This document shows positions 45,363 to 50,938 of a stretch of DNA of 64,000 nt, in pieces. The number at the start of each line of letters is the position of its first letter. Within the stretch, counting starts at the first letter, position 1. The notes under the pieces are model-generated. The model saw only the letters and a program-made list of their open reading frames with translations. It was not told the origin of the DNA and did no database searches. A program made the position numbers and the translations under genes. Source of the DNA: an uncultured Lachnospiraceae bacterium (GTDB taxonomy: Bacteria > Bacillota > Clostridia > Lachnospirales > Lachnospiraceae); contig CACZBW010000012.1 in assembly GCA_902779575.1 (NCBI GenBank), positions 62,001 through 126,000 on the forward strand, given 5' to 3'.

Positions 45363-46775
45363 TTAATCCTCCGTCAGGCAGCTGTATTCAGCGCTCTGGC
45401 GGGTGCTGAGGTATTCCCTGGACGCTGCGATCGCCTTTTCCATGGAAGCCCTCCCGGGAGCGCCTTCCGTCAGGCGTTTCTCCACACAGGTCTTCAGGGA
45501 AATCGCCTCGTAGATATCCCCGTCAAAACAATCCGAAAACTGTCTGAATTCTTCAAGGCTCAGGTCATCCAGAGCTTTCCCCTTTTCGATGCAGTACAGC
45601 ACCAGCCTTCCGGTAATGGCATGCGCGTCCCGGAAGGGAACGCCTCTGGAAGCCAGATAATCCGCTGCGTCCGTAGCGTTTGTAAAACCGTTTTTCGCGG
45701 AAGCTTCCATCACTTCCCTGCGGAATTTCATGGTGGAAACCATGCCGTCGAAGAGACGGATGTTCATTTTGACCGTGTCAATCGCGTCAAAAGCGCTCTC
45801 CTTATCCTCCTGCATGTCCTTGTTATAGGCAAGCGGAATCCCTTTCATCACTGTCAGCAGGCCCATCAGGGCGCCGTAGACGCGCCCGGTCTTGCCCCTG
45901 ACCAGTTCCGCGATATCCGGATTCTTTTTCTGCGGCATAATGCTGGAGCCGGTTGAATAGGCGTCGTCCAGTTCCACGAACCGGTATTCATTGCTGTTCC
46001 AGATGATCACTTCCTCGGAGAAACGGCTCAGATGCATCTGGCAGGCCGCCAGAATACTGAGAAACTCGATCAGGTAATCCCTGTCGGAAACCCCGTCCAT
46101 GGAATTGGCGCAGGGACGGCTGAAGCCAAGCTCCCTGGCGGTAAAGCAGCGGTCCAACGGATAGGTCGTCCCGGCGAGGGCCCCGCTTCCGAGGGGGCAG
46201 GTGTCCATGCGCTCTGTCAGGGAACTTAAATGTTCCCTGTCCCTGCGGAACATCTCAAAATAAGCCCCGAAATGATGGGCGAGGGTGACCGGCTGCGCCT
46301 TCTGCAGGTGGGTGAAACCCGGCATGAAGGTATCCAGATTCTCCTCCATGACGCGCAGGATGGTCTCCAGAAAATGCTTCAGCAGGGCGTCCGTCTCGTG
46401 TATCTCGTCACGGATATACAGTTTCATATCCAGCGCGACCTGGTCATTGCGGCTGCGCCCGGTATGCAGCTTCTTTCCGGCGTCCCCGATCCTACTGATC
46501 AGATGTGCCTCCACAAAGCTGTGAATATCCTCATATTCATCCGTAAATGCAAGTTCCCCGCTCTCGATATCCCTGAGAATGGAGCCGAGTCCGCCGACAA
46601 TCTGCTCCACCTCCCCGTCTGACAGGATGCCCTGCTTGCCGAGCATCGCGGCGTGGGCCATGCTGCCCTGGATATCCTGCCGGTAAAGACGGCGGTCAAA
46701 GGGAAGCGAGTCGTTGAACCGCTTCACAAGTGCGTCTGTTTCTTTCGTAAATCTGCCGCCCCAAAGCTGCGCCAT
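45363..46775 (-). CDS. argH: Argininosuccinate lyase
   Basis: The 470-residue product splits argininosuccinate to arginine and fumarate. GGRFTKETDALVKRFNDSL is the typical start, HTGRSRNDQVALDMKLY is conserved, and GSSIMPQKKNPD is the fumarase/aspartase-superfamily signature loop with the catalytic Ser. AGAAGGAGG precedes the start. argG is not in the window. Tandem 90-base repeats fill the spacer upstream. Confidence 0.97.
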   Translation of the reverse strand: MAQLWGGRFTKETDALVKRFNDSLPFDRRLYRQDIQGSMAHAAMLGKQGILSDGEVEQIVGGLGSILRDIESGELAFTDEYEDIHSFVEAHLISRIGDAGKKLHTGRSRNDQVALDMKLYIRDEIHETDALLKHFLETILRVMEENLDTFMPGFTHLQKAQPVTLAHHFGAYFEMFRRDREHLSSLTERMDTCPLGSGALAGTTYPLDRCFTARELGFSRPCANSMDGVSDRDYLIEFLSILAACQMHLSRFSEEVIIWNSNEYRFVELDDAYSTGSSIMPQKKNPDIAELVRGKTGRVYGALMGLLTVMKGIPLAYNKDMQEDKESAFDAIDTVKMNIRLFDGMVSTMKFRREVMEASAKNGFTNATDAADYLASRGVPFRDAHAITGRLVLYCIEKGKALDDLSLEEFRQFSDCFDGDIYEAISLKTCVEKRLTEGAPGRASMEKAIAASREYLSTRQSAEYSCLTED

Positions 46776-46800: not shown

Positions 46801-47111
46801 GCCGGCGGTTTCCATACTGTGCTGTCCTCATCTGCTCCCGGATCCCGGTATCTTCAGCTGCGAGGCTTTATCTGTGCGCCTACGGTATCCGCCGGAAACT
46901 TCCATGATCTGCTGTCCTCATCTGCTCCCGGATCCCGGTATCTTCAGCTGCCAGGCTTCATCTGTGCGCCCGCGGCATCCGCCGGAGACTTCCATGATCT
47001 GCAGTCCTGATCTGCTCCCGGATCCCGGTATCTTCAGCTGCCAGGCTTCATCTGTGCGCCCGCGGCATCCGCCGGAGACTTCCATGATCTGCTGTCCTGA
47101 TCTGCTCCCGG
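46801..47111. repeat. 90-base tandem repeats, about 3.5 copies
   Basis: Copies start at 46801, 46891 and 46981, with a partial copy at 47071 that loses identity near 47111. Copies 2 and 3 differ at only 3 of 90 positions; copy 1 differs from copy 2 at about 12. The unit starts GCCGGAGACTTCCATGATC and ends CCGCGGCATCC. The array lies between the queH stop and the argH start and accounts for nearly all of that 362-base spacer. The period of exactly 90 keeps reading frames open by chance, but no ribosome-binding site or family match supports a protein. Confidence 0.95.
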
Positions 47112-48446: not shown

Positions 48447-50534
48447 TTATTTCCATTTGAAGTACAGTTCGTACCCGATCTCCCGGAGCTGTCCCGGAAT
48501 CTCCCTGACCTGCCGGCGAATGAAAGACCGGGTCGTCTCATTCAGCTGCTCGTATGGAACCAGTTCCGGCGTCTGCTTCAGGTCCGGATTCGCCGTTCCC
48601 ACCGTCCATCCCGCAGTCATGCGGTCCCGCATCCATCTTTCATGCTCAAGGGAAGCAAATTCTTCCAGCACCGGTCCGAAGAGTTCCGTTATGGCGTCCG
48701 GAGCGGCCGGAAGAAGAAGCGCTGTCTCTGTTTCTCCGGCCGGTTCATCCGGCCTGTCGGACGAGACGCTTCTCCCCGCGATCGGCCTGAGTCCGACCTG
48801 CATATCATAGTCCTGCAGTTTTTCCCCGAGAAAGCGGATATGCGAGCGGTAGCTTTCTTTATAGCATTCCTCCAGATCCTTCCATGGAGCGAGCTCATCC
48901 GGGCAGTGGGCAGTTTCGAAGGTCATACTGATCTCTCCGGCGCTCATCGAGGCTGCGGACAGCGCTTCCGGAAACGCAGCAGTCCCTGCCTCTTTATCAA
49001 ATGGCGGCTGACCGTCCGTCTCCCCGGCGCCGGGATGTTTTTTGAGAAGATTCATATGCGCGATTCTCGCGTACTGCTCCACGGCATCCCCCATCACCTG
49101 CTCGAAAGCCAGCTTGTTCCGGAAGTCCTTCACATCCAGGTGGAGATCCAGCTGCTCATCCATGGGGAGGCAGGAGGGCGTGAAACGGTTGACGTCGGAA
49201 AGCCTGCACATGGAGAGGATGAACTCAAGGGACCTTGCCCCGTGCCGGTACTCAGACACTCTGAGCAGGGCGGAAAGAAGGCCTCTGGAGATATTGATCA
49301 GCCCGCCGTCCGAATTGTAGATGCCGGGGATCCTGCGGATAATCTGCTCTCTGAGCAGGACAGCCCTCCGGATAATATGGCTGCGGTCCGTGAAGCTGAC
49401 CGGATTCAGGCCCTTGATATTCAGGATTCCTTTCAGCCTGCTGACGAAATCCGGACCCTTGACCCTGCGGAAGGCGTCGGACTGGGCAGTTGAATCCCCC
49501 TGGTCCGCGGGAAGAAACTGGCGGAAGGATTCCGCAGTTCCGCCCGCGAAGACAAATACGGCGTCGTCGATGGATCTTGTCCTGCCGCTCAGGGTATACT
49601 CCCCGTCCTGCATTGGGGCCAGGAAATATTTCAGCCAGCCCCTCGCCTCTGAATCCAGTTCCGAATCAAATTCATCAAAGAAAATGAGAGGAATGCTGCC
49701 TTTCGGACATTTCAGGGCTTCCTCCAGCGCTTCAAAAAGGGCGTCGGGACCCTTATACTGGGAAACATTCAGGGATGTGACAGCAAATCTTCCCGAGGTG
49801 GAGGCAATCTGCTTCACTCCGAAGGATTTCCCCGCACCCGGAGGGCCGAAAACCGCTATGGAAAGCGGCTGCAGCATATCGCCCGGCTGCATGCTGTCGC
49901 ACTGGAGAATGTAATCATCCAGCAGGGCGCGGATTGTCTGGTAGTTCTCGATCTCATCCCGGTCCACGGTCGCAAGGGCATTATAATGGCAGACCGGCAC
50001 ATGCCGGTACAGTTCCTCCGGACCCGCGAAAACGATCTGTTCCGCCGCGGCAAGGTATCCTCCCGGCTGGGACATGCAGTATTCATCAAGAATGCAGAAA
50101 GGATTCTTCCCGGATACCAGCGCCTTCATGCTCCGCTCAGGTACGCGGATCCTGCATACGGTTCCTTCCTTCTCCTTCTTCATAAGGGAGCGGAGGACCG
50201 GATAGAGCGGGGCGTCCTCGCTGAGGGAAGAACCTTCCGCGCACAGGGGGGTAAAGAGAAGGATCCATCTGCCGTCCTCGCGGATCAGCGCTCCTTCCTC
50301 GTTCAGCAGAATCACCAGGTCCCTGCGGACCTTCAATGCGTGCAGGGAATCATTCACCGCAAGCTGCAGGAGAAATTCATCCACAGTGCGCTCATAGGAT
50401 AAATGCCTGCTGATGGGGTAATCCAGATTTCTGAGATGCGCCATCTGCATCATCGGTATTTTATTGGTCTCAAAAGCCTCGGCAAAAGAACTGCCGGGCA
50501 CATATTCTTTATAATCGTTTCTGTTTTTCAACAT
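48447..50534 (-). CDS. AAA+ ATPase with C-terminal ryanodine-receptor (RyR) repeat
   Basis: The 695-residue product has three parts. Residues 1 to about 215 match no family I know. Residues about 225-440 are an AAA+ domain with Walker A FGPPGAGKSFG (Lys near 235) and Walker B LIFFDEFDSE (near 285). Residues about 620-690 look like an RyR repeat: SLEHERWMRDRMTAGWTVG, then LVPYEQLNETTRSFIRRQVR, ending in an LREIGYELYF helix. RyR repeats in bacteria are thought to bind small ligands, possibly nucleotides. No signal peptide is seen. It has its own promoter and no obvious partner enzyme nearby. Function is unknown; a ligand-gated remodelling or defence role is inference. Confidence 0.8.
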   Translation of the reverse strand: MLKNRNDYKEYVPGSSFAEAFETNKIPMMQMAHLRNLDYPISRHLSYERTVDEFLLQLAVNDSLHALKVRRDLVILLNEEGALIREDGRWILLFTPLCAEGSSLSEDAPLYPVLRSLMKKEKEGTVCRIRVPERSMKALVSGKNPFCILDEYCMSQPGGYLAAAEQIVFAGPEELYRHVPVCHYNALATVDRDEIENYQTIRALLDDYILQCDSMQPGDMLQPLSIAVFGPPGAGKSFGVKQIASTSGRFAVTSLNVSQYKGPDALFEALEEALKCPKGSIPLIFFDEFDSELDSEARGWLKYFLAPMQDGEYTLSGRTRSIDDAVFVFAGGTAESFRQFLPADQGDSTAQSDAFRRVKGPDFVSRLKGILNIKGLNPVSFTDRSHIIRRAVLLREQIIRRIPGIYNSDGGLINISRGLLSALLRVSEYRHGARSLEFILSMCRLSDVNRFTPSCLPMDEQLDLHLDVKDFRNKLAFEQVMGDAVEQYARIAHMNLLKKHPGAGETDGQPPFDKEAGTAAFPEALSAASMSAGEISMTFETAHCPDELAPWKDLEECYKESYRSHIRFLGEKLQDYDMQVGLRPIAGRSVSSDRPDEPAGETETALLLPAAPDAITELFGPVLEEFASLEHERWMRDRMTAGWTVGTANPDLKQTPELVPYEQLNETTRSFIRRQVREIPGQLREIGYELYFKWK

Positions 50535-50722: not shown

Positions 50723-50938
50723 TCAGAGCGTATCCAGGATCTTCCGTACCTCCTCCTCTTCCATCCCGCACAGGTCGCTGACCATACCGATCATGGCGTC
50801 GCCTCCATGGGCGTTCATCTTCCGGTCCAGCTCCAGAAAACGCTGCGCAATCACCCTGCGCTCATTCCTGGCGCCCTCTTCCCTGCACTGTTCTCCGTAT
50901 TCACGGACCTGTTCAATCAGAATATCAAATCTGTTCAT
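50723..50938 (-). CDS. Small helical protein resembling the tail of Rpn/transposase-like nucleases
   Basis: The 71-residue product has AAGGAG seven bases before its ATG. It is charged and helical (QVREYGEQCREEGARNERRV, then DLCGMEEEEVRKIL). Such tails occur at the C-terminus of Rpn-family PD-(D/E)XK proteins, but here there is no nuclease domain upstream. It may be a stand-alone small protein or a remnant. It ends 188 bases before the AAA+/RyR gene. Confidence 0.55.
   Translation of the reverse strand: MNRFDILIEQVREYGEQCREEGARNERRVIAQRFLELDRKMNAHGGDAMIGMVSDLCGMEEEEVRKILDTL

What the first reader, a model, noticed from the sequence alone, without database searches (positions are those of the whole stretch)
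48447..50534. AAA+ ATPase fused to a ryanodine-receptor repeat
Seen: Walker A and B of an AAA+ domain in the middle and an RyR-like repeat at the C-terminus, behind an uncharacterised N-terminal domain. Known: RyR repeats are best studied in animal calcium channels, and bacterial ones are thought to sense small ligands. Inference: this may be a ligand-gated ATPase, possibly part of a nucleotide-signal or defence pathway, standing alone under its own promoter next to two small genes of unknown function. It is the strongest candidate here for an undescribed system.
Basis: partly seen in the sequence, partly recalled or inferred. Interest (0 to 1): 0.75.

Follow-up and report, generated by a model that had tools for sequence, protein, structure and literature searches.

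The report
Orphan AAA+ ATPase with RyR nucleotide-sensor
A gut-type Clostridia genome carries a solitary ATPase that ends in the nucleotide-pocket domain known from animal ryanodine receptors; its closest relative outside its own clade sits next to a TIR immune-signal gene, so it looks like an immune-signal receptor that left its system and probably changed its ligand.

Summary
In detail: the minus-strand ORF 50534..48447 (695 aa) has AAA+ and C-terminal RyR domains (PF02026 E 2.4e-12) and is under purifying selection (dN/dS 0.08). The RyR part is a two-repeat module like animal R12 and like phage RyDEP, which binds and cleaves TIR-made cyclic ADP-riboses (PMC13232231). RyR genes are tied to TIR genes: 16 of 42 Lachnospiraceae RyR genes lie within 5 kb of one (0.27 expected; restriction-subunit control 0 of 72). 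The closest AAA-RyR outside the window's clade (L051) lies behind a membrane-RyR gene and a TIR gene. The window's clade differs: no such partner found, no TIR hit in this genome. It keeps the His and Trp equivalent to RyDEP H75 and W78 (22 of 22), lost D117 (Ile, 22 of 22) and nearly always H100 (21 of 22). Best reading: a soluble adenine-nucleotide-gated AAA+ ATPase descended from a TIR-linked receptor, now alone, with altered ligand and unknown target. No local system was found. Structure prediction was off and two likely prior sources could not be read.

The parts
48447..50534 (-). Whole gene: solitary AAA+ ATPase with C-terminal RyR (R12-type) module, 695 aa
   Evidence: dN/dS 0.08 against L007
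49980..50534 (-). N-terminal piece, residues 1-185: aligns with the later part of a longer N-terminal region of long-form relatives (possibly ribokinase/PfkB-like; weak)
   Evidence: alignment A1; PfkB only weak:
49095..49979 (-). AAA+ ATPase core, about residues 186-480
   Evidence: PF00004 at 228-313; conserved core in A1
49824..49847 (-). Walker A GPPGAGKS, residues 230-237
   Evidence: invariant residues
49665..49682 (-). Walker B FFDEFD, residues 285-290
   Evidence: invariant D287/E288
48780..49082 (-). RyR repeat 1 (degenerate first half of the module, about residues 485-585, bounds approximate, with an insert shared with L007)
   Evidence: repeat found by the home-made RyR model as best stretch in relatives L009, L017, L024; H493 and W551 nearly invariant
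48465..48674 (-). RyR repeat 2, PF02026, residues 621-690
   Evidence: E 2.4e-12; PDB RyR chains E 3.1e-12
48633..48644 (-). H631-x-x-W634, equivalent to H75 and W78 of phage RyDEP; T655 and I672 stand where RyDEP has H100 and D117

Best explanation
The gene encodes a soluble AAA+ ATPase whose C-terminal two-repeat RyR module is a pocket for an adenine nucleotide. Shown: the domains, the intact ATPase motifs, conservation of the His and Trp equivalent to RyDEP H75 and W78, selection on the protein, and lack of the usual partners in the flanks held. Inferred: ligand binding closes the RyR clamshell and switches an AAA+ ring, which then remodels an unidentified target. Its ancestors worked beside a TIR enzyme and a membrane-RyR protein and read a TIR-made ADP-ribose signal. 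The window's clade left that gene row, has a shorter N-terminal region, and has Thr and Ile where RyDEP has H100 (phosphates) and D117 (terminal ribose, catalytic acid). It therefore probably reads a different adenine nucleotide and does not cleave it.
For: RyR and AAA domains over curated cut-offs; match to animal RyR chains. RyDEP contacts its ligand with H75, W78, H100 and D117 (PMC13232231); these letters are confirmed in the fetched gene. In 22 short-form sequences H75 is 22/22, W78 22/22, H100 1/22, D117 0/22, all Ile. In the tree L051, whose TIR and membrane-RyR genes lie next to it, groups with the short clade at 98/89, and the short clade is 100/100. RyR-TIR clustering 16 of 42 against 0.27 expected; control 0 of 72. 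dN/dS 0.08, 0.064 and 0.125 in three pairs. No strong hydrophobic segment.
Against: No ligand, ATPase activity or target was measured, and structure prediction was off. RyR could be a protein-binding module. Two other genomes with the short form (G230, G293) hold TIR genes and a second RyR gene elsewhere, so TIR signals are not absent from every host of this clade. H75, which also touches the terminal ribose in RyDEP, is kept, which fits an unchanged ligand too. D117 loss marks about two lineages, so its link with solitude rests on few events; two long forms without found partners (L034, L065) keep Asp. The relation to the TIR gene row rests on a single L051 sequence, in a tree rooted at the midpoint with several long branches.
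Confidence: 0.5

Rival explanations
1. It is still a receptor for TIR-made cyclic ADP-ribose and acts in defence, using a TIR enzyme encoded elsewhere or an incoming signal.
For: H75 and W78 equivalents kept in 22 of 22; closest outside relative in a TIR gene row; G230 and G293 hold TIR genes. Six of eight phage RyDEP homologues bound the signals without cleaving them (PMC13232231).
Against: No TIR_2 or TIR hit in the window's genome; the residues at H100 and D117 are changed; of ten flanking proteins tested, three match PADLOC models, and Pfam reads these as an alpha-amylase, a response regulator and an ABC transporter.
Confidence: 0.17
2. The RyR module no longer binds a small molecule and serves to dock a protein partner or to assemble the ring.
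For: Change of two pocket residues; the largest amino-acid divergence between window and L007 lies in the RyR part (dN 0.136 against 0.028 in the AAA part, though dS is higher there too).
Against: The Trp and His of the pocket are invariant in 22 short forms.
Confidence: 0.2
3. The RyR part is a glycosidase that degrades ADP-ribose signals, as RyDEP does.
For: Same domain family; H75 equivalent present.
Against: D117 of the catalytic dyad is Ile in 22 of 22 short forms; the eight phage homologues tested did not cleave (PMC13232231).
Confidence: 0.03
4. A decaying remnant of a lost immune operon with no present function.
For: Shorter N-terminal region than in long forms; no partners found; one relative, L027, is split between two frames.
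Against: Purifying selection in three pairs; 20 short-form loci besides the window hold one ORF of 640 aa or more.
Confidence: 0.05

Closest known systems
Phage RyDEP (mycobacteriophage DyoEdafos gp78) and phage RyR-domain sponges (PMC13232231)
   Same: RyR module with H-x-x-W; by eye RyDEP also carries a preceding PW-containing stretch like that of the bacterial proteins.
   Different: RyDEP is a 138-aa stand-alone anti-defence enzyme with H100 and D117; the window protein is fused to an AAA+ ATPase, has Thr and Ile there, and is a cellular gene.
Animal ryanodine receptor Repeat12 (R12) domain
   Same: Sequence match E 3.1e-12; R12 binds AMP-PCP or ADP in a cleft, with adenine stacked on Trp880 in RyR3 (PMC12627627, abstract and passages).
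   Different: No strong hydrophobic segment, so no channel; fused to an ATPase.
TIR-linked bacterial RyR genes, e.g. L051: membrane-RyR, TIR, AAA-RyR in a row
   Same: Same AAA core plus RyR; groups with the window's clade.
   Different: The window gene has no TIR or membrane-RyR neighbour and differs at H100 and D117.
Thoeris (TIR enzyme plus nucleotide-gated effector)
   Same: Works-like: a receptor domain reading an NAD-derived signal (inference).
   Different: No TIR in the locus or detected in the genome; I saw no paper that names AAA-RyR as a Thoeris effector, but the main TIR survey was not held.
Bacteroides thetaiotaomicron putative ryanodine receptor (3nrt, 4n05; organism named in PMC13232231 and recalled)
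   Same: Bacterial RyR domain, E 1.9e-5 for 3nrt against the window protein.
   Different: A single domain of about 100 aa.

Membership tests
RyR domain family PF02026 | Profile score over Pfam's gathering cut-off | tested here: met
   47.4 bits against 27.4
AAA+ ATPase PF00004 | Profile score over cut-off, Walker A and B | tested here: met
   25.6 bits against 21.2; motifs invariant in A1
AAA+ ATPase PF00004 | ATP hydrolysis and oligomeric ring | not testable with these tools
   structure prediction switched off
RyDEP glycosidases | Catalytic dyad H75 and D117 | tested here: not met
   H631 present, I672 in place of D117; 22 of 22 short forms have Ile
cADPR-binding RyR proteins (sponges or receptors) | Ligand contacts H75, W78, H100, D117 | tested here: inconclusive
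   H75 and W78 kept, H100 and D117 equivalents are T655 and I672
Thoeris or other TIR signalling system | TIR gene in the operon or genome | tested here: not met
   no PF13676 or PF01582 hit in G000, 95.3% complete; other TIR models were not tried
Known anti-phage system (PADLOC) | Match to a defence protein model | tested here: not met
   only a 26-residue P-loop match to mad8, E 0.0083
PfkB/ribokinase (N-terminal domain of long forms) | Profile match and GxGD catalytic motif | tested here: inconclusive
   PfkB in 2 of 9 long-form N-termini, best E 0.0048, below cut-off; hhalign E 0.0027, probability 11%, against E 0.057, probability 1%, for an RCK-RyR control; no PDB match better than E 0.36. 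The GxGD region is absent from the short form.
Ryanodine receptor channel | Transmembrane pore | tested here: not met
   maximum 19-residue hydropathy 1.31 in the window protein

The most novel reading that the evidence does not exclude
Bacterial RyR modules are the receptor domains of a broad class of TIR immune operons, passing an ADP-ribose-type signal to two-TM RCK-like membrane proteins, HD-like hydrolases, RelA/SpoT-LSDAT proteins and AAA+ ATPases. The window's clade is a receptor ATPase that escaped from such an operon and was retuned to another adenine nucleotide. [quoted passage not shown]
Probability: 0.4. Interest if true: 0.85.

Novelty: new variant of a known kind. Interest (0 to 1): 0.57.

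Why it matters
Whether cyclic ADP-ribose acts directly on animal ryanodine receptors is a long-standing question (recalled; PMC13232231 also points to it). If the bacterial form of this domain is the receptor for TIR-made ADP-ribose signals, the question becomes testable with small soluble proteins, and phage RyR proteins become plausible copies of the host receptor used as decoys. The window's clade offers a natural mutant series in which two pocket residues changed, which should show what sets ligand specificity.

Tried and rejected
Partner genes: the 71-aa ORF and DUF6465 were found only in L007 among the loci held, so they are not recurrent partners. Clustering of neighbours: the largest shared family is a MatE transporter in 5 loci at differing distances (two members tested); a 292-319-aa family lies directly upstream in 3 loci (L010, L011, L030) and is a choline-binding-repeat protein in the two tested, which I do not read as a partner. 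An upstream ORF of 71-72 aa in L004 and L016 is unrelated to the window's.

PfkB as the N-terminal domain: attractive by eye (GD, PGG, GxGD in order), but weak statistically; kept as a possibility.

Phage or plasmid origin: the full-length query finds no phage record at E 1e-5 and two plasmid records with distant relatives, of which one has no RyR. One viral contig carries the AAA core without a RyR hit (L078).

Defence island: I gave Pfam and PADLOC ten flanking proteins from eight of the 25 short-form loci. Pfam over cut-off: amylase, response regulator, glycerate-kinase-type MOFRL, shikimate kinase, metallophosphatase, amidohydrolase, ABC transporter, DUF6612; one only a sub-cut-off HTH, one nothing. 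PADLOC matched three of the ten, all explained by those families.

Literature: the listings of searches showed no paper on bacterial AAA-RyR or TIR-RyR operons. Burroughs 2015 (gkv1267) and Yirmiya 2025 (bioRxiv 2025.12.03.692087) are not held, so prior description there cannot be excluded. Word look-ups in PMC9503650, PMC13142454 and PMC13174449 found no RyR.

Full report
What is there. The ORF lies on the minus strand, 50534..48447, 695 aa. Pfam places AAA (PF00004) at residues 228-313 and RyR (PF02026) at 621-690, both over the curated cut-offs. Against PDB sequences the best match is a RyR chain, E 3.1e-12. In a 24-row alignment the Walker A and B residues, R366 and R434 are invariant. The RyR part is a two-repeat module: in three relatives (L009, L017, L024) the RyR model's longest stretch was the first repeat and a later stretch the second; in the window protein H493 and W551 mark the first. 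The gene is under selection: dN/dS is 0.08 against L007 (0.063 in residues 1-185, 0.049 in the AAA part, 0.101 in the rest) and 0.064 and 0.125 in two other pairs.

Relatives. In the window's genome the gene is single copy. In 299 genomes of its family, window included, 4 match: the window, two further short forms (G230, G293) and a divergent long form (G050). I take the family as Lachnospiraceae because G293 and G230 loci coincide with loci of named Lachnospiraceae records. A scan of one genome per species gave 34 loci. Twenty-five are short forms, by their titles mostly Clostridia from rumen or gut assemblies; 20 of these hold one ORF of 640 aa or more, the rest are cut by contig ends or, in L027, split. 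Others are longer proteins (843-853 aa where complete) from Euryarchaeota, Syntrophomonadaceae, Zixibacteria and others. In long forms the P-loop lies about 110 to 270 residues further in. That N-terminus looks ribokinase-like by eye, but statistics are weak: PfkB in 2 of 9 members at best E 0.0048, below cut-off; hhalign E 0.0027 with probability 11% against E 0.057 for an RCK-RyR control. I leave this open.

RyR genes and TIR genes. Several long forms sit beside other relevant genes: a TrkA_N-RyR protein and a RelA/SpoT-TPR-LSDAT-RyR protein in L033 (LSDAT just below cut-off), a TrkA_N-RyR protein in L031, and a TrkA_N protein plus a SLATT-like protein in L037 (SLATT below cut-off). In L051 a membrane-RyR gene, a TIR gene and an AAA-RyR gene follow one another on one strand with gaps of 66 and 41 bases. 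I therefore tested the link in general. PF02026 occurs in 38 of 299 family genomes (42 genes). TIR_2 was sought in these and four more genomes. Of the 42 RyR genes, 16 have a TIR_2 hit within 5 kb; 0.27 are expected for random places, and no run of 200,000 simulations passed 5. As defence genes cluster, I used the restriction subunit HsdS as control in the same 38 genomes: 0 of 72 hits, 43 of them in TIR-bearing genomes, lie within 5 kb of a TIR hit. The other 26 of 42 RyR genes, the window's among them, have no TIR_2 hit that near. Outside the family, read, 5 of 6 RyR genes in four genomes have such a neighbour. RyR carriers include two-TM RCK-like proteins, proteins with an HD motif that I read by eye in L053, L099, L107 and L108 (Pfam gives no HD family for them), and stand-alone domains of about 100 aa. 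Some labels rest on home-made models and weak scores; the RyR of the L107 HD protein is found by my model but not by Pfam at E 0.01.

Why this matters for ligand. A May 2026 preprint (PMC13232231; I read the abstract, results and first part of the methods, passages, and part of the references) shows that the mycobacteriophage protein RyDEP has this fold and binds and cleaves TIR-made 2'cADPR and 3'cADPR. H75 and D117 are the catalytic dyad and touch the terminal ribose, W78 braces the adenine, H100 the phosphates. Six of eight phage homologues tested bound the signals; the tested homologues did not cleave them. A 2025 paper (PMC12627627, abstract and passages) shows adenine nucleotides in the animal R12 cleft. 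I fetched RyDEP and confirmed the four letters.

The window's clade differs. With RyDEP numbering, 22 short-form sequences (window included; L008 left out as the same species as L009; L025, L028 and L030 lack this part) have H75 22/22, W78 22/22, H100 1/22 (Thr 9, Ser 8, Asn 3, Arg 1) and D117 0/22, Ile in all. Eleven long forms have H75 11, W78 9 (Phe 2), H100 7, D117 7; the four with Leu at 117 are one group (L090-L093). Seventeen membrane-RyR proteins have H75 17, W78 17, H100 14, D117 13 (three Asn, one gap). So the window protein keeps the adenine contact and one of the two ribose contacts, and has changed the phosphate contact and the catalytic acid.

Solitude and descent. None of 25 short-form loci holds a TIR, second RyR, membrane-RyR, SLATT or LSDAT gene, by my home-made models, in the flank available; only 8 of the 25 have 5 kb or more on both sides, and the window has more. 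Some loci come from the same species or assembly (L008 and L009; L011 and L025; L028 and L038). Ten flanking proteins from eight loci gave mostly metabolic, regulatory or transport families and no convincing defence match. Among the 11 long forms with RyR, 5 have such partners (L031, L032, L033, L037, L051) and in 6 I found none (L034, L065, L090-L093), though L034 and L065 have under 2 kb behind the gene. L065 is on a plasmid near a SIR2-family gene and a transposase. In a 41-row tree, rooted at the midpoint and with several long branches, L051 groups with the short clade at 98/89, the short clade is 100/100, and L090-L093 fall elsewhere. So D117 was lost about twice, each time in a gene without found partners. 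The genomes of the window and of L090-L093 have no TIR hit with two models, but G230 and G293, which carry the short form, have TIR genes and a second RyR gene elsewhere. The link between solitude and residue loss is suggestive, on few events.

Mechanism. The best-supported reading is a soluble AAA+ ATPase gated by an adenine nucleotide at the RyR module. Domains, motifs, selection, lack of partners and residue changes are shown; gating, ring formation and ligand change are inferred; the target is unknown. Defence by this gene is possible but not favoured by its context.

Novelty. The listings of the nine literature searches named under Tried and rejected showed no paper on bacterial AAA-RyR proteins or RyR-TIR operons. 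Two likely places of prior description could not be read; from memory only, Burroughs and colleagues (2015) discussed LSDAT domains in nucleotide-centred conflict systems. I therefore rate it a new variant of a known kind.

Noticed in passing
window 46820-47111: Tandem array of 3.2 copies of a 90-base unit (95% matches) between the ORF at 45363-46775 and the QueH ORF.
   Followed up: no
window 50723-50938 (-): 71-aa ORF upstream of the finding, no match over a cut-off, 84.5% identical in L007 and not found in the other loci held.
   Followed up: partly
   Followed up: partly
   Followed up: partly
MT836850.1 and MT837259.1 (human faecal phage records): Short contigs with a RyR domain 45-47% identical to the stand-alone RyR protein of L032; 155 phage records in all match that query at E 1e-3.
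   Followed up: no
L032:251-565: A 104-aa stand-alone bacterial RyR domain directly before an AAA-RyR gene matches animal RyR1 repeat 1 at E 4.3e-21; a small TIR-like gene (home-made model, E 9.1e-6) lies convergent behind.
   Followed up: partly
L027:6729-8744: Short-form gene split into two reading frames, a broken gene or an assembly error.
   Followed up: no
L078 (IMGVR_UViG_3300048597_000653): A viral contig of 117 kb with a 964-aa protein holding this AAA core and no RyR hit.
   Followed up: no
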